Positions 2,418-39,351 of a stretch of DNA of 64,000 nt are shown in pieces (the stretch's first letter is position 1; every line of letters starts with the position of its first letter). The stretch covers positions 30,582 to 94,581 of the forward strand of contig JABAZY010000017.1 in the NCBI GenBank assembly GCA_018608245.1, read 5' to 3'. The notes beneath the pieces are model-generated. The model saw only the letters and a program-made list of their open reading frames with translations, was not told the DNA's origin and searched no databases. A program made the translations under genes and the position numbers. This DNA comes from Alphaproteobacteria bacterium. Lineage in GTDB: Bacteria; Pseudomonadota; Alphaproteobacteria; Micavibrionales; Micavibrionaceae.

Positions 2418-5400
2418 ATGAAATTTTTAAAACGCTACAGACGGACAAGAAAAACAGAAAAAGGAAATATCTTTTTTATGCTTTTTGCTGCTGTCGGTGT
2501 TGTTGGCGCATTAGGGGTCGGTTCGACCACAATTCTAAAAGGGCCAGTAAGTAGTATGGTTAAAACCAATCAAGTAACCATGATTGAAAATCGTGCAGAG
2601 CTTGATTTAAAGTTAATGATTAATAATATCATTACCACAACGCCAGATTGTGACTCTGATGACACAATAGAGGCGATGGAGTGGCGCGATGCAGTCGGTG
2701 GTGAACCACCGGTCATTACAGGCGGTGGTTACCTTCCTGCGGCTATTGCAGGGGCAACGACAGACCCATGGGGGCGTGAATTAGGGTATTGTGTATGGGA
2801 TAATGGTTCTGCGATTGATGATGTGGGTTGTGGCGGAGCAACACAAGACAGGCTTACGGGGTCAATTCTAACAGACGAGCCATTTGTGGCAGTTGTTTCT
2901 GCAGGACCCGATCAAAAATTCCAAACAAGTTGTGTTGATTTTGTTGATACAACACCTGCTGATGGCGACCCAGACACGCCATTAATCGCACGCGTTGCCA
3001 ATAGTGACGATATTGTTCTGACCTATACTTACGATGAATTAAAAGCAGTGATGGGTGATAATTGGTTATATACCTCTGATAGCGTCGGGGAAGATACTGT
3101 TAAGACAAATCAAGGCGTTGAAATAACAAATGATGTCACTATCTCAACGGGTGTCTTAGATATGAATTTATTGGGTGGAACCTTAAGTCTATCCGAAGTA
3201 CCAGGAAGCTGTACTGTTGCAAGAGATGGGCAAATGTTCCGTGATGCATCAGTAACCCCTCCTGCCATTATGCTGTGTGATTCAGGTACGTTTGTCTCCA
3301 TTGGTGGTGGCGGCGCTTCTAGTGACGATTGTGCAGGTAAAACAACAGGCATCTGCATCGGCTTCGATCCAGAAGCTGCAAATTGTGAAGTAAATAATGG
3401 CGATCCTTTTGTTGAAGCAGGCGCTATTGCCACACCTAATCTTGCCTTCGGTGTTTGGGGCGATGGCACATATATATATGTTGGAGTGAGGGACGACGGC
3501 GTACGTGCGTATACATTTGATGGGTCAACATTCACAGAAGTAGGTGCTTTTAATACACCTGGCCATTCCCATAGTGTATGGGGCGACGGCACATATATAT
3601 ATGTTGGTGATACATTTAGTGGCGTACGCGCCTATACATTTGATGGATCAACGTTCACAGAAGAAGGTTTTTTTAATACACCTGACAGTGCCTTCGATGT
3701 CTGGGGAGATGGCACATATATATATGTTGCTGACAGCGCAAGTGGCGTGCGTGCATATACATTTGATGGATCAACGTTTACAGAAGTAGGCGCTTTTGAC
3801 ACACCTGACAACGCTACTGGTGTATGGGGAGATGGCACATATATATATGTTGGTGATGCAAATAGTGGCGTACGTGCTTATAGTTTTGATGGGTCAATTT
3901 TTACAGAATTAGGTGTTTTTTATTCACCTGGCCAATCTGGTGCTGTATGGGGCGACGGCACATACATATATGTTACTATAAATTCTGAAGGTATAGCGGC
4001 ATATACATTTGATGGATCAACTTTTACAGAAGTTGATATTTTTGAAACTGGAGGCAATGCTAATGACATCTGGGGCGATGGAACATATCTTTATGTTTCT
4101 ACTCAGGCAGGTGGTTTACGCGCTTATTCTGGCTTCGAATGTACATCCATCTCTGCGAAGCCAGAGATTGATACAAAAACCGATAGAAACACCAAAATTT
4201 ATGGTTGGGGTGGAAATGGAAATGCTCAATTTGTTGATCCTGCTTACGGTACAACTGATCAACCTTCGGCGGTTGAAATCACAGGGTTAAATGATATTAG
4301 AAGAATTTCATTAGGGATTTCTGGACACGCTTGTGGAATAGATTCAAACGATCAAGCATGGTGTTGGGGTGAGGCATCTAACTTTAAACAAGGGCATAAT
4401 AATTTTGGTAGTAATCAACCACCAACAAAAGTCATTGGTGAAAATTCGAATTTTAAATCCATTTCGGCGGCACTACGACATACATGCGCGTTGAAATATG
4501 ATGGAACGGCATGGTGTTGGGGGTATAATAGTGATGGGCAATTAGGCGATGGTACTATTGGAGGCAGTAGGGCAACACCAGAACAAGTTGTTGATATTAC
4601 TGATTTTATTGATATCAGAACAGGTGGTGATAACACGTGCGGTATACGCAAAAATAAGGAGTTATGGTGTTGGGGTGAAGATGATAATGGAGAGCTAGGT
4701 AATGGGACGTTATTAACCGCTGACTTACCGAGACCATCAAAAGTACAAAATTTATCTGGTGTTGTACAAATTGGTTTTGCTGGATATGATTCAATTTGTG
4801 CACTTACTGAATCAGGAAATGTCTGGTGTTGGGGACAAAATGATCGTGGACAACTTGGTATAGGATCAGTTACTGCAGATCAACCTTTGCCTGTTAAAAC
4901 AAAAGTTTTATCAGATGTTATACAAATAGCTCAATACCGCGAGGGTGCATCTGCTTGTGCTTTAAAGCAAGATGGAACAGCATGGTGTTGGGGACACGGG
5001 TTTGAAGCACAATTAGGAAATGGTTCAACAAGCCGTCAAGAGACACCGACACAAGTAGCAACAATTACAGATTTTGTTAAAATTTCTACTTTGGGGCAAG
5101 GGGGCTGTGGTTTACGTGCCAATGGTGAAATTTGGTGTTGGGGTGCTGATGGTAGTGGGCAATTAGGGAACGGCGCGGTTACAACTGGGAGTCAATACAC
5201 GCCTGTTTTAAGTGATCCAACTTTAAAATTCTATGATTTTGTGTCACAATCAAACGAAGTAATTGCTTATACAAAAGACTACACCGACGGTGATGAAAGC
5301 TTACCAGTAGCACCTGTGATGATTCAACAATCTCATGACGCGGGGGAGGCCGTTGGGTCGCATGGTTTGGCGGTAACCTATAATGGACCTTCTGGCGATC

Positions 5401-7961
5401 GCGTTGGTATTGCACTTACTGTTGATGCGGATGCGGATAGTGGTGACCCTACTTCGGTAAATATTAATGCCCGAAAAGGTACATCAGAACATGAACTTCG
5501 GTTTACAACGAACAGCACCGATATTTTACGACTTAAAAAAGATAGTTTTACTATAGGTAATGAAAACGGTGTTATTGGAACTAGAGTAGGTCAGTTACAA
5601 ATAGGTGTGCATGATGGAGGTTGGAGTTTAGATCTTTCCTATATAGATGGTCTTTTAATTTCTAAAAAAGGTGTTGCTACACTAAACCCATCTTACTTTG
5701 GGGTTAATTCAGAAACGGGTGAGACAAATATTTTATCTGGCCGTGAATTACTTATTCAACATACGGATGATACAGGCGTCACAATTGCACCTGTTGCCTC
5801 TTTTTTAAATAATACAGGCAGTACATTCTTTGGTGCGGTGAATATACGCGGTGGTGATTTCACCATTACGGCATACACAGACACAGCTACTGAACATGCG
5901 TCCTATAAATTCTTCCGCTACCGTGGAGATGCAACAACGCCAACACAAGCTATAGGAAGTGATCATTTAGGTAGAGTTAGATTTTTAGGGTACGCAGGTG
6001 GAAATTACACAGGGCCCGCAGATATTCAATCTCGATTAATTGGTAACTTTGGTGTTGGTGATTTGCGTACAAATTTAATAATGAACACAGGTTCAATTAG
6101 TTTTGGTGGTGCTTCTGTGAATGACTTTGCTGTAAATTATGATGGTATTGTGCTTTTTAACAGAGCGGTCTCTCCTAAATCTCTCTTGACCATCGGTGGG
6201 CGCGGCGCGGCGGATGAGGGTGTTAAGTTCAGTAACGACACAACCTGCGCCAGCGCGGCTTACGACGAAGGTACAATCCGCTGGACAGGTACAACTTATG
6301 AATATTGCGATGGAACACAATGGTTACCTATGATACCAACTGCGGTCGGTAGCACCTGTACCGATGATGAAACATTTTATGATATAGGCTTAGGATTAGA
6401 ACATAGTTGCGCTGTCTACTCTAATGGACAAGTGGTTTGTTGGGGACGCTCACATCTTGGTCAATTAGGAAATGGTACTCTGAATTTAGAAGAAGCTTCT
6501 TTGATACCAATTTCTAGATCGGTCATTGATGACGCAATTAAAGTGGCAAGTGGGTGGGGCCATAGCTGTGCTTTAACAAAAAAAGGTGAAATTTATTGTT
6601 GGGGTGGAAACTCAGTAAATGGAGAATTGGGTAATGGTAGTGCTGATAGTATGGATTTTCCAATTAAAATTGCCTCTCCCGAAAAATTTATCGATGTTGG
6701 TATTAACCATCAACACGGTTGTGGAATTACTGAAGACAATGCTCTTAAATGTTGGGGTAATGGCGGATCAGGTCAATTAGGAGATGGTGGATCTACTGAT
6801 GCTACGATTCCACAGGATGTATATGGTATTGATAACGCAGTTAAAGTTTCTGTTGGGTATAATAATACATGTGTCGTTTTAGCAGATAAAACGGCCAAAT
6901 GTTGGGGTGATAATGCCTATGGTGAATTGGGTAGAGGAACATTTACTGCTTTCGAATTTCTACCTGGCGCTGTAACAGGTTTAACGGATGTTATAGATAT
7001 AGATATAAATGGTCGATTTAGTGGTTCTCCAGTTTATACAGCCTGCGCTGTAAAAACGGATGGTACGGTGTGGTGCTGGGGTAGTAATGGGCAAGGTCAA
7101 TTAGGAAATGGTAGTACAGGAGCGGCTCAAGCCAACCCATTACAGGTCACTGGTATTACAAATGCTATTGATGTTGAAGTAGGAAGGGAGCATGTATGTG
7201 CTTTACGGGCTGATGGAACAGTGTCGTGCTGGGGAGATGATCTGCATGGTAAATTAGGAAGTGGTGCATCGACTTTAGATAGTAGCACGCCCGTCACTGT
7301 CACTGGTATTGCAACAGCCGTTAAAATAGATGTTGGGGATAGACATAGTTGTGCTTTATTGTTTGATGGCGCAATGCAATGTTGGGGAAATAATGCTTAT
7401 CATAGGTTAGGTGACGGAACCAATACAAATCGCCCTGAGCCTGTTGATGTAATAAATTCATTATCGTGTGATTCAGATAAGTATGTATTTCTTACTTCTA
7501 TCTCTTATCCAGCTGATTTAGGTGGATTAGAAGGCGCGGATGCTGTTTGTCAATCGCATGCCGATCAGGTGAGGTTACCAGGTACTTATAAAGCCTGGCT
7601 GTCCGATAGTACGAATAGTCCATCCACAAGATTTAATAGGTTAGATTCTACGTATGATTATAAGCTTGTGAATGGTACAGTTGTTGCGGACGGTTGGGAT
7701 GATTTAACAGACGGTACAATTGATACTCCAATTATTGTGACTGAAGAGAACGTTACACTAGCAAATGATGTAGTTCCTACAAATACTGCTACAGATGGAA
7801 CGGCTTTTAATGCAACAGAAAACTGTGCTAACTGGACAACTAGGTCAGGCGCATTGAATTATAATCGTGGACGGTTCAGTGTTAGTGATTCAAGATGGAC
7901 TTTTGAAGGTTCTACAAGTTCATGTAACTCTACGCATAAATTATATTGTTTCCAGCAATAA
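2418..7961 (+). CDS. Giant prepilin-like, multi-propeller surface protein with C-terminal DUF1554
   Basis: An 1847-residue protein. The N-terminus is basic (about residues 1-15), followed by GN and a hydrophobic helix at about 17-40. That is the layout of type IV prepilin or pseudopilin leaders, although the exact cleavage motif is not certain. After a roughly 300-residue head come six 41-residue WGDGTYIY repeats (346-575) and an RCC1 block of seven CWG-containing repeats (about 592-933). A middle region with phage-tail-fibre-like flavour includes a CDGTQW module (to about 1310). A second RCC1 block of seven repeats lies at about 1320-1681, and a DUF1554 domain at about 1688-1847 (LGGLEGADAVC, KAWLSDST; a lectin-like fold). 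Most RCC1 repeats carry two cysteines, suggesting disulfides and an extracellular location. It lies 15 bp behind the related upstream gene, and its stop abuts that of dnaQ. An adhesin role is inference. Confidence 0.85.
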   Translation: MKFLKRYRRTRKTEKGNIFFMLFAAVGVVGALGVGSTTILKGPVSSMVKTNQVTMIENRAELDLKLMINNIITTTPDCDSDDTIEAMEWRDAVGGEPPVITGGGYLPAAIAGATTDPWGRELGYCVWDNGSAIDDVGCGGATQDRLTGSILTDEPFVAVVSAGPDQKFQTSCVDFVDTTPADGDPDTPLIARVANSDDIVLTYTYDELKAVMGDNWLYTSDSVGEDTVKTNQGVEITNDVTISTGVLDMNLLGGTLSLSEVPGSCTVARDGQMFRDASVTPPAIMLCDSGTFVSIGGGGASSDDCAGKTTGICIGFDPEAANCEVNNGDPFVEAGAIATPNLAFGVWGDGTYIYVGVRDDGVRAYTFDGSTFTEVGAFNTPGHSHSVWGDGTYIYVGDTFSGVRAYTFDGSTFTEEGFFNTPDSAFDVWGDGTYIYVADSASGVRAYTFDGSTFTEVGAFDTPDNATGVWGDGTYIYVGDANSGVRAYSFDGSIFTELGVFYSPGQSGAVWGDGTYIYVTINSEGIAAYTFDGSTFTEVDIFETGGNANDIWGDGTYLYVSTQAGGLRAYSGFECTSISAKPEIDTKTDRNTKIYGWGGNGNAQFVDPAYGTTDQPSAVEITGLNDIRRISLGISGHACGIDSNDQAWCWGEASNFKQGHNNFGSNQPPTKVIGENSNFKSISAALRHTCALKYDGTAWCWGYNSDGQLGDGTIGGSRATPEQVVDITDFIDIRTGGDNTCGIRKNKELWCWGEDDNGELGNGTLLTADLPRPSKVQNLSGVVQIGFAGYDSICALTESGNVWCWGQNDRGQLGIGSVTADQPLPVKTKVLSDVIQIAQYREGASACALKQDGTAWCWGHGFEAQLGNGSTSRQETPTQVATITDFVKISTLGQGGCGLRANGEIWCWGADGSGQLGNGAVTTGSQYTPVLSDPTLKFYDFVSQSNEVIAYTKDYTDGDESLPVAPVMIQQSHDAGEAVGSHGLAVTYNGPSGDRVGIALTVDADADSGDPTSVNINARKGTSEHELRFTTNSTDILRLKKDSFTIGNENGVIGTRVGQLQIGVHDGGWSLDLSYIDGLLISKKGVATLNPSYFGVNSETGETNILSGRELLIQHTDDTGVTIAPVASFLNNTGSTFFGAVNIRGGDFTITAYTDTATEHASYKFFRYRGDATTPTQAIGSDHLGRVRFLGYAGGNYTGPADIQSRLIGNFGVGDLRTNLIMNTGSISFGGASVNDFAVNYDGIVLFNRAVSPKSLLTIGGRGAADEGVKFSNDTTCASAAYDEGTIRWTGTTYEYCDGTQWLPMIPTAVGSTCTDDETFYDIGLGLEHSCAVYSNGQVVCWGRSHLGQLGNGTLNLEEASLIPISRSVIDDAIKVASGWGHSCALTKKGEIYCWGGNSVNGELGNGSADSMDFPIKIASPEKFIDVGINHQHGCGITEDNALKCWGNGGSGQLGDGGSTDATIPQDVYGIDNAVKVSVGYNNTCVVLADKTAKCWGDNAYGELGRGTFTAFEFLPGAVTGLTDVIDIDINGRFSGSPVYTACAVKTDGTVWCWGSNGQGQLGNGSTGAAQANPLQVTGITNAIDVEVGREHVCALRADGTVSCWGDDLHGKLGSGASTLDSSTPVTVTGIATAVKIDVGDRHSCALLFDGAMQCWGNNAYHRLGDGTNTNRPEPVDVINSLSCDSDKYVFLTSISYPADLGGLEGADAVCQSHADQVRLPGTYKAWLSDSTNSPSTRFNRLDSTYDYKLVNGTVVADGWDDLTDGTIDTPIIVTEENVTLANDVVPTNTATDGTAFNATENCANWTTRSGALNYNRGRFSVSDSRWTFEGSTSSCNSTHKLYCFQQ
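3453..4130 (+). repeat. Six tandem 123-bp coding repeats (WGDGTYIY unit), second array
   Basis: Unit starts at 3453, 3576, 3699, 3822, 3945 and 4068 are spaced exactly 123 bp; the last unit is cut short. DNA identity between units is high by eye, and the GGGCGATGGCACATATATATATG core recurs with few changes, so slippage or recombination could change copy number. Confidence 0.9.
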
Positions 7962-36937: not shown

Positions 36938-38563
36938 TTAACCAAACCCGAGTCCGATGTTGGTAATGCCTAATGTATTTTGTACAGCGACAATCATTGG
37001 TCCTAAGTTAACGGCAATTGCGCCACCAATCATGTGAGTCATGCCTGCCATGGTTGAAGCTTGTGAATCACCTTCTGCAACCTTACGCATGATAAAGAAG
37101 CCACGCATTACACTGATGAGGCCGAGTATATAAACAAACTTAATAATGGCATCAACGACTGCTTGAATACGAGCTATTTCATCACCTTCTAAGCCTGCTG
37201 TATAGATCAGTTCTGATTGTACTGTTGTTACAGGATTGATAAATAAACTTGTTGTTAATGCGGTGATCATTGGGCTGAAAGCAATTAATGCGCCACCAAC
37301 TGCGAATGTGATTATTGTCCCTATGCCACCAGGTCCACGAGCGCCCTCTTGAGCAGATTTCATTAAGCGCGTAATACCGATAAAGATTAATACGCCACCA
37401 GCAATGAAGCCGAACCAGTTAATAAGAACAGTCATCGGGCCAAAGATATCGGCCATTAAACCACCTAACATAGCATCCAAACCACCACCACCTGCAGCAG
37501 GGCCACCAGTAAAGAAGCTAATAATACTGCCTAATACACCAGTATTGGTGTGAACTGGAACAAAGCCAGCAACTGTGTTGTAAATAACACTCATCATCGT
37601 TGGTAGGGCGAATAATGCTCCTGCAACTAACAGACGTGATACACCTTCCCAAACGGTTACTTGGTCTGGCTTGAGAACGTGTTCTTGTACTTTTAATAAG
37701 CCCCAAATTGCGACAAAGATACCACAAATATAAGCGAAAGATTTAACCAATAGTGGGAAAGAGAGTGTACCGCCCCACATGCGACAGATAACACCGCCTA
37801 ATGAATTTGAGAATAAATTAACAGGACAAGCACCACCTTCGCTTGATAGACCTAACATGTTAGCGCCCATGACACCTAAACCCATACCTGCTGTATCACC
37901 ATCATCAGCAACTGTGGTGAACACAACTTCAAAAATGAATGGGATAGTTAGGAAAGCACCAGAGATTAATGCACGGATAACAGATTCTTTAAGAGCTACT
38001 TGACCGCTTGTTTCAACGTGCGCTTTTAGTTTTAAAAGAGCTGCAATACCTGCGACTATTCCAAGCAAATAAGATACGCCTGTGGCCAGCCCTGGTAATG
38101 TTGAAAGAGATGTTCCTATATTTCCAAAAATAGCATTCATAGAAAAAGGAATTCTTGCTAATGCATTTCCTGCTTCTGATAGAACATTACTGTCTTGCTC
38201 TCTAAAACCAATACCATCTACTGGATTGATTGTATTTTGGAATACGTCATACATTGTTGGGAGTGCGAGCAATGCCCCACTAATTAAAAGGTTGATGACT
38301 GGGATTTTTAGTTCGACACTTGTAGGTGCTTCAACATGCGCCTTTAATTTAACTAATCCAATAGAACCGAAGATAGTAGCGAGAATGTAACCACCACCCG
38401 TTACGATTCCGGGAAGAGAAGCAGCAGAAGTTCCCGCATTATCAACGAGGTCGGTGACATCTTGTGCAAGCGGGCTATCCGCGCCAATAATCATTGCTAT
38501 CGCAAAATTAAACAATAATGCTGAGTATATTAGAACCTTATGGCTGTATTTATTATTTTTCAT
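36938..38563 (-). CDS. Membrane protein with five tandem IcmD/DotP-like repeats
   Basis: A 541-residue protein. An N-terminal hydrophobic segment (about residues 9-33, ending SPLAQ) looks like a signal peptide. Five repeated hairpins follow at about 50-110, 157-217, 268-331, 377-440 and 468-531. Each has a membrane helix, a short basic link (LKLKAHVE in the first two, KVQEHV in the third, diverged in the last two) and a second helix rich in GAL and P ending near a VxxNT/TT motif. This hairpin resembles IcmD/DotP and IcmC/DotE of the Dot/Icm type IVB secretion system, which carry one copy. The start has a GAGGGTGG sequence just upstream. No other secretion genes are in the window. The function is inferred from resemblance only. 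Confidence 0.75.
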   Translation of the reverse strand: MKNNKYSHKVLIYSALLFNFAIAMIIGADSPLAQDVTDLVDNAGTSAASLPGIVTGGGYILATIFGSIGLVKLKAHVEAPTSVELKIPVINLLISGALLALPTMYDVFQNTINPVDGIGFREQDSNVLSEAGNALARIPFSMNAIFGNIGTSLSTLPGLATGVSYLLGIVAGIAALLKLKAHVETSGQVALKESVIRALISGAFLTIPFIFEVVFTTVADDGDTAGMGLGVMGANMLGLSSEGGACPVNLFSNSLGGVICRMWGGTLSFPLLVKSFAYICGIFVAIWGLLKVQEHVLKPDQVTVWEGVSRLLVAGALFALPTMMSVIYNTVAGFVPVHTNTGVLGSIISFFTGGPAAGGGGLDAMLGGLMADIFGPMTVLINWFGFIAGGVLIFIGITRLMKSAQEGARGPGGIGTIITFAVGGALIAFSPMITALTTSLFINPVTTVQSELIYTAGLEGDEIARIQAVVDAIIKFVYILGLISVMRGFFIMRKVAEGDSQASTMAGMTHMIGGAIAVNLGPMIVAVQNTLGITNIGLGFG

Positions 38564-38730: not shown

Positions 38731-39351
38731 TTAAGAGACAGGTGCATCCACTTTTACAGGTAAATCTGCTGCAATAGGTTCGTCATTCAGCATCTCGATC
38801 ATACCGCCGGGTTGTACAGAGAAATTGGCGATAAATAGAGCATTTGCGTAGTATACAACCGCATCACAGAGCCAGTTTCCAGCATCATCCTTACCTTCGT
38901 AAGTGGCAGGGCGAATTGTTCCTTCGATCACCATTTTGGTTTTATCATCTAATTCTTTAGGCACATAAGTGTCTTCCATGCTTTCAGCAATCAAAAATGG
39001 TCCTGCTTCTCCACGAACGAAGAAACAGAAGAATTTTAAGTACTCAAGCACGTTTTCTTCAGTGATTTTGATAGGTGCTTGCGCATTAACTTCATGAATA
39101 GGCGGAGATGTTCCATTTAGCCAAAAAAGGTTACCTTGATCGGTCAAATAGTAAATAAATAGGTTTTTAGGCGACCATGCGGGGTCTTTTACGCGAATAA
39201 GCGCTACTTGATCATAAAAAGGCAGAGGTCTCCAATCCACGTATGTTGTGCTTGAATTAACGTGATATTTATCACCGATTGGGTTAATTTGGTCTAGAAA
39301 CCCTGCTAGTTCTTCGCCTTGAACGGGATTCCAGTTATCATCCATATACAT
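38731..39351 (-). CDS. Conserved-looking hypothetical protein, 206 residues
   Basis: A soluble protein without signal peptide or membrane helix, rich in aromatic residues. Notable segments are PFYDQVALIRVKDP, LFIYYLTDQGNLFWLNGTSPPIH and YLKFFCFFVRGEAGPFLI. The fold is likely alpha/beta. No family is recognised. It lies upstream of the IcmD-like gene on the same strand with a 167-bp gap, and divergent from rpmH. Start at ATG 39351 (or 39345). Confidence 0.7.
   Translation of the reverse strand: MYMDDNWNPVQGEELAGFLDQINPIGDKYHVNSSTTYVDWRPLPFYDQVALIRVKDPAWSPKNLFIYYLTDQGNLFWLNGTSPPIHEVNAQAPIKITEENVLEYLKFFCFFVRGEAGPFLIAESMEDTYVPKELDDKTKMVIEGTIRPATYEGKDDAGNWLCDAVVYYANALFIANFSVQPGGMIEMLNDEPIAADLPVKVDAPVS

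What the first reader, a model, noticed from the sequence alone, without database searches (positions are those of the whole stretch)
36938..38563. One membrane protein made of five IcmD/DotP-like hairpins
Dot/Icm secretion systems use small IcmD/DotP-type proteins with one two-helix hairpin. Here five diverged copies are fused behind one signal peptide. The LKxKxH link and the GAL...P second helix are kept in the first three and lost in the last two. Such a fusion could form a ready-made pentameric or pseudo-symmetric membrane ring. I know of no described protein of this form, and no other secretion gene is nearby.
Basis: partly seen in the sequence, partly recalled or inferred. Interest (0 to 1): 0.72.

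Follow-up and report, generated by a model that had tools for sequence, protein, structure and literature searches.

The report
Fused hairpin subunit of Dot/Icm secretion
This gene from a Micavibrio-like bacterium joins three copies of one small membrane subunit (DotP/IcmD type) and one copy of another (DotE/IcmC type) of a Legionella-like secretion machine into a single protein; the fusion is real and unusual, but the number of hairpins varies between relatives, so a built-in five-part ring is not supported.

Summary
The 541-aa protein has a signal-like N terminus and five two-helix hairpins. They are not five copies of one thing. Units 1-3 belong to the stand-alone IcmD/DotP-like family (TraR, DUF6750). 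Units 4-5 are together one TraQ/IcmC (DotE) protein (hhalign 99.1%, E 8.5e-19 over 168 columns). So the architecture is (IcmD)3-IcmC.

The genome does carry a type IVB (Dot/Icm) system, on other contigs: DotD, DotC, DotB, IcmT, DotI, DotH, IcmJ, DotO, DotM, a coupling ATPase and four tandem DotA paralogs. In relatives where the gene has stayed in the cluster, it sits between dotF and icmD-icmJ-dotO, the icmC/traQ slot. In this genus it moved beside rnpA.

All 38 relatives searched have the family. The number of IcmD-like units is 1, 2, 3 or 4 (3-6 hairpins in all), and it changes even inside one genus. That argues against a required pentamer.

Most likely it is a T4BSS inner-membrane component in which VirB2-type (TraR/TraQ) hairpins are fused, fixing their ratio and order; free IcmD subunits are still encoded. 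Its exact role is inference. New variant of a known kind.

The parts
36938..38563 (-). whole gene: (IcmD/DotP-like)x3 - TraQ/IcmC/DotE fusion, 541 aa
   Evidence: ORF; orthologs in 38 of 38 relatives
38462..38563 (-). signal-peptide-like N terminus, res 1-34 (lysines, hydrophobic core, ADSPLAQ)
   Evidence: read from the sequence; hydropathy; no signal-peptide predictor was available
38225..38464 (-). unit 1, IcmD/DotP-like hairpin, res 34-113
   Evidence: 69.8 bits to the stand-alone IcmD-like HMM; 49% identical to the genome's own stand-alone protein
37889..38143 (-). unit 2, IcmD/DotP-like hairpin, res 141-225
   Evidence: 72.1 bits
37784..37828 (-). Cys pair in the unit 2-3 linker (C246, C260), possible periplasmic disulfide
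   Evidence: both invariant in 31 five-hairpin sequences; disulfide is inference
37568..37774 (-). unit 3, IcmD/DotP-like hairpin next to the DotE part, res 264-332
   Evidence: 61.0 bits; a unit in this place is present in every chromosomal member examined
37229..37471 (-). unit 4 = first hairpin of the TraQ/IcmC/DotE domain, res 365-445; conserved KSAQEGARGPGG loop
   Evidence: NF033883 hit res 365-533; hhalign to TraQ 96.9%, E 1.3e-10
36953..37201 (-). unit 5 = second hairpin of the TraQ/IcmC/DotE domain, res 455-537
   Evidence: hhalign to TraQ 98.0%, E 2.6e-13; whole unit 4-5 region 99.1%, E 8.5e-19

Best explanation
It is an inner-membrane component of a chromosomal type IVB (Dot/Icm-like) secretion system of a Micavibrionaceae bacterium: the DotE/IcmC (TraQ) subunit, fused at its N terminus to three DotP/IcmD (TraR) hairpins. 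Shown by sequence and synteny: the domain identities, the slot in the dot/icm cluster of relatives, a complete-looking T4BSS in the same genome, and variation of the number of IcmD-like units (1-4). Inferred: after signal-peptide cleavage the linkers face the periplasm and the basic loops face the cytoplasm, as in VirB2-type hairpins; the chain works as a pre-assembled inner-membrane scaffold with a fixed DotP:DotE order and ratio, beside the DotA-based channel, which freely encoded IcmD subunits join. The least certain step is the last: whether this scaffold is a channel collar, a pilus base or only a stoichiometry device. The confidence given is for the identity as a fused T4BSS DotE/DotP component; the scaffold role alone I would put near 0.5.
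For: Units 1-3 against the stand-alone IcmD-like family: hhalign 99.9-100%, 99.9% E 2.1e-33 for the best unit. Stand-alone IcmD-like against TraR/DUF6750: 95.8% E 8.3e-9; 13 of 22 members hit Pfam DUF6750 and 4 hit TrbC/VirB2 at E<=0.1. Units 4-5 against TraQ: 99.1% E 8.5e-19; 29 of 30 family members hit NF033883 TraQ. TraQ is homologous to DotE (IcmC) of L. pneumophila, and TraQ/TraR are VirB2-related and indispensable for transfer (PMC6112013). Synteny dotI-dotH-dotG-dotF-[fusion]-icmD-icmJ-dotO in G016, G028, G012, G018, G010, G011, G035, matching plasmid traM-N-O-P-Q-R-HNH-U. T4BSS genes in G000: DotD, DotC, IcmT, DotI, DotH, IcmJ; four DotA/TraY related to solved DotA 9ngy; DotM and coupling ATPase. 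Charge pattern fits periplasmic linkers and cytoplasmic loops. No PF04956 VirB2 match in this genome.
Against: P0001 scores below the NCBIfam TraQ cut-off (34.9 against 80 bits). No direct comparison with Legionella IcmC/IcmD was made; that link rests on a paper's alignment and on gene order. Nothing shows that the gene is expressed, membrane-inserted or not processed into pieces.
Confidence: 0.85

Rival explanations
1. Ready-made pentamer: the five hairpins form one pseudo-symmetric five-fold ring in the membrane, matching the pentameric DotA-IcmX (VirB6-VirB5) channel or the five-fold layers of VirB2 pili.
For: Five hairpins in this genome and in the largest long-form group (35 distinct five-hairpin proteins in the tree set). 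DotA-IcmX is reported as pentameric (PMC12857230). The hairpins are VirB2-related.
Against: Hairpin number is 3, 4, 5 or 6 among orthologs; sister genomes in the DotO tree have 6 and 3 (G001 and G008); units 4-5 are a different family from units 1-3, so the ring would not be symmetric in sequence.
Confidence: 0.08
2. Pilin polyprotein: the chain is a string of VirB2-type pilins that is cut between units, and the released hairpins polymerise into a pilus.
For: TraQ/TraR are placed in the VirB2 family (PMC6112013); stand-alone hairpins are encoded in the same genome; some linkers are long and rich in small residues.
Against: I see no repeated cleavage-like segment between units; only the first unit is preceded by a signal-like segment; the Cys pair C246/C260 in one linker is invariant, so that linker seems to be kept rather than discarded; units are position-specific orthologs rather than interchangeable.
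Confidence: 0.07
3. Stoichiometry device only: fusion has no structural novelty; it just ensures that DotP-type and DotE-type hairpins are made together, and extra units come and go by duplication.
For: Copy number is labile, and in four-unit forms unit 3 is closest to unit 2 of other genomes, as a duplication would give; free IcmD genes persist in the clusters.
Against: In three-unit forms unit 1 matches unit 1 (29 of 35) and unit 2 matches unit 2 (34 of 35) across genomes, so units keep distinct, long-held identities.
Confidence: 0.25

Closest known systems
TraQ of IncI/IncM-type conjugation systems, homologous to DotE/IcmC of Legionella Dot/Icm (NCBIfam NF033883)
   Same: Units 4-5 align over the whole TraQ length; same place in the gene order (after traP/dotF, before traR/icmD).
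   Different: TraQ/DotE stand alone (176-180 aa in the plasmids read here); in this protein three IcmD-like hairpins and a signal-like peptide precede it.
TraR (Pfam PF20535 DUF6750), gene-order counterpart of DotP/IcmD
   Same: Units 1-3 and the neighbouring stand-alone genes of relatives are of this type: signal-like peptide, one hairpin, basic loop.
   Different: TraR/IcmD have one hairpin per protein; here three are in one chain, each with position-specific sequence.
VirB2/TrbC pilins (Pfam PF04956)
   Same: Two-helix hairpin with basic loop; weak Pfam hits in 4 of 22 stand-alone relatives.
   Different: VirB2 are single-hairpin pilins of T4ASS; P0001 has no PF04956 hit and this genome has none.

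Membership tests
TraQ/DotE (IcmC) | full-length sequence match of the two-hairpin domain | tested here: met
   hhalign 99.1%, E 8.5e-19, 168 columns; NF033883 E 1.3e-8, but 34.9 bits against a curated cut-off of 80
TraQ/DotE (IcmC) | position between dotF/traP and icmD/traR-icmJ-dotO | tested here: met
   met in relatives G016, G028, G012, G018, G010, G011, G035; in G000 itself the gene lies on another contig
TraQ/DotE (IcmC) | stand-alone ~180-aa protein | tested here: not met
   541 aa with three extra hairpins; a domain member, not an ordinary TraQ
IcmD/DotP (TraR, DUF6750) | hairpin profile match | tested here: met
   units 1-3 at 61-72 bits; stand-alone family against TraR 95.8%; units 4-5 are not members
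IcmD/DotP (TraR, DUF6750) | single hairpin per protein | tested here: not met
   three in one chain
VirB2 pilin (TrbC, PF04956) | Pfam match over cut-off | tested here: not met
   no PF04956 match to P0001 or in G000
VirB2 pilin (TrbC, PF04956) | assembly into a pilus | not testable with these tools
   needs microscopy or structure
Type IVB secretion system in this genome | DotB/C/D, DotI/H/G, IcmJ, DotO, DotA and coupling complex in one genome | tested here: met
   DotB, DotG, DotF and DotO assigned partly by gene order

The most novel reading that the evidence does not exclude
The fusion is a covalently built, non-extractable base of VirB2-type hairpins on which free IcmD hairpins assemble, i.e. 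a pilus base or channel collar not described for any T4SS, whose size is tuned by gaining or losing hairpins, in a lineage that has also multiplied its DotA channel genes.
Probability: 0.18. Interest if true: 0.75.

Novelty: new variant of a known kind. Interest (0 to 1): 0.48.

Why it matters
The roles of DotE/IcmC and DotP/IcmD (TraQ/TraR) are, to my knowledge, unsettled, and I found no solved relative by sequence. A natural fusion suggests that the two work side by side, gives their order in a chain, and offers natural variants with one to four DotP units for tests of stoichiometry. It also points to a Dot/Icm-like machine throughout the sampled relatives in Micavibrionales, a group with epibiotic bacterial predators, for whose reference strain ARL-13 no evidence of a type III or IV system was reported (PMC3189940).

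Tried and rejected
A single-sequence scan of genome contigs found nothing; the alignment scan worked. PDB sequence searches with the fusion, IcmD-like, TraQ and TraR profiles gave no credible relative. Considered and rejected: chance similarity of membrane helices (reversed decoys give under 8% probability apart from one 12-column self match; unit 4 against units 3 and 5 is no better than decoys); assembly artefact (35 distinct five-hairpin proteins); an orphan remnant without its system (T4BSS present). Piscirickettsia plasmid hits were not opened, as other plasmids served. Yue et al. 2025 and Guglielmini et al. 2014 were not held in the paper library.

Full report
What is there. Window 36938-38563 (-) encodes 541 aa. 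Pfam gives nothing credible; NCBIfam gives TraQ of IncI1 conjugation at residues 365-533, E 1.3e-8, below its cut-off. Family-averaged hydropathy shows an N-terminal hydrophobic segment and ten strong helices in five pairs, plus one marginal hydrophobic stretch in the linker at the Cys pair (res 246-264). The short loops are basic (family means 2.2-3.6 K/R) and the long linkers acidic (0.2-0.9 K/R), which by the positive-inside rule puts loops in the cytoplasm and linkers in the periplasm (inference).

What the units are. A profile built only from stand-alone IcmD-like proteins of the relatives and of this genome hits units 1-3 at 61-72 bits and units 4-5 at 8-10 bits, all in register. Profile-profile: units 1, 2, 3 and the stand-alone family are one family (99.9-100%); unit 4 matches the first half of plasmid TraQ (96.9%, E 1.3e-10) and unit 5 the second half (98.0%, E 2.6e-13). 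The whole C-terminal part matches TraQ at 99.1%, E 8.5e-19, 168 columns. The stand-alone IcmD-like family matches plasmid TraR (95.8%, E 8.3e-9), and 13 of 22 members hit DUF6750. Units 1-3 against 4-5 are weak (2-71% by pair), mostly above reversed decoys, so a common hairpin ancestor is likely but not shown for each pair. Published work aligns TraQ of pCTX-M3 with DotE (IcmC) of L. pneumophila and places TraQ and TraR in the VirB2 family (PMC6112013).

The rest of the machine. The genome (72 contigs, 2.02 Mb, 99.86% complete) has on contig C62: DotD, DotC, DotB, IcmT, DotI, DotH, DotG and DotF by position, three IcmD-like genes (two encode identical proteins), IcmJ and DotO; on C70 DotM and a coupling ATPase; on C1 four tandem DotA/TraY-family genes, similar to solved DotA 9ngy.

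Synteny. In G016, G028, G012, G018, G010, G011 and G035 the fusion lies between dotF and icmD-icmJ-dotO. In G001, G003-G009 and G017 it lies beyond dotO, in the opposite orientation, beside a 206-aa gene and rnpA-yidD, the flank seen in the window. In G000 cluster and flank are on different contigs, so their true distance is unknown. This explains the apparent isolation.

Distribution. 38 of 38 genomes of the order (28 genera, 7 families, own genome included) have the family; 18 of 385 genomes drawn from the class do, some with only stand-alone hairpins. The alignment scan of named genomes returned 79 loci, titled Micavibrio, Micavibrionaceae, Rhodospirillales or simply Alphaproteobacteria; contig lengths tie G001:C50 to 'DT-Micavibrionaceae-1'. 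So the source is most likely a Micavibrionaceae genome (inference from these matches).

Copy number. Among 122 rows (some are the same protein seen twice) the count of IcmD-like units before the DotE part is 0 in 7 (plasmid TraQ), 1 in 59, 2 in 5, 3 in 47 and 4 in 4. On a DotO tree the count needs at least 6 changes; G001 (4 units) and G008 (1 unit) are sisters with SH-aLRT 100. Yet in the tree of the DotE part, G001+G008 is rejected (AU p 1.35e-9), and long and short forms tend to group apart. The simplest reading is that long and short forms of the gene have replaced each other at the same locus; differential loss of paralogs is not excluded. Units hold their place: unit 1 is nearest to unit 1 in 29 of 35, unit 2 to unit 2 in 34 of 35; in four-unit forms unit 3 is nearest to unit 2 of others, so the extra unit looks like a duplication.

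How it may work. Shown: identity, place and variability. Established elsewhere: traQ and traR are indispensable for conjugation (PMC6112013); DotA-IcmX forms a pentameric central channel in Legionella (PMC12857230, PMC12981334). Inferred: the chain is an inner-membrane scaffold that presents DotP-type and DotE-type hairpins in fixed order beside the DotA channel and the DotO motor, with free IcmD proteins as further subunits. A strict five-fold reading does not fit the varying count.

Limits. No structure prediction was possible. The DotE/DotP link to Legionella is by literature and gene order. Function in predation is not tested here; a T4BSS that kills bacteria is known in Pseudomonas putida (PMC9519443, abstract).

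Noticed in passing
G000 contig C1:11012-22138 (L148, L149): Four tandem DotA/TraY-family genes (898, 933, 877, 911 aa; 33-51% identical). Micavibrionaceae relatives have several (3 or more matches each); other families of the order have one or none at the same threshold.
   Followed up: partly
G000 contig C62:31273-36722 (L039): Four tandem ~450-aa secreted, cysteine-containing paralogs (38-52% identical) next to dotI, of no known Pfam or NCBIfam family, conserved in the family; possibly the IcmX/VirB5 counterpart, which is not shown.
   Followed up: partly
window 38731-39351 (-): 206-aa protein of unknown family next to the fusion gene, 84-87% identical to its orthologs in G005 and G001, where rnpA, yidD, yidC and the fusion are only 43-63% identical; unusually conserved.
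   Followed up: no
G000 contig C62:41589-42612 (L040:1589-2612): Two tandem IcmD-like genes encode identical 132-aa proteins, a recent duplication or an assembly effect.
   Followed up: no
window 2418-7961 (+): 1847-aa protein with many RCC1-type propeller repeats and a weak C-terminal DUF1554 match.
   Followed up: no
L029:571-2385 (+) and L100:2245-4059 (+), genome G006: The short-form ortholog in G006 has an open frame with about 280 extra N-terminal residues without IcmD-like match; may be a start-codon artefact.
   Followed up: no
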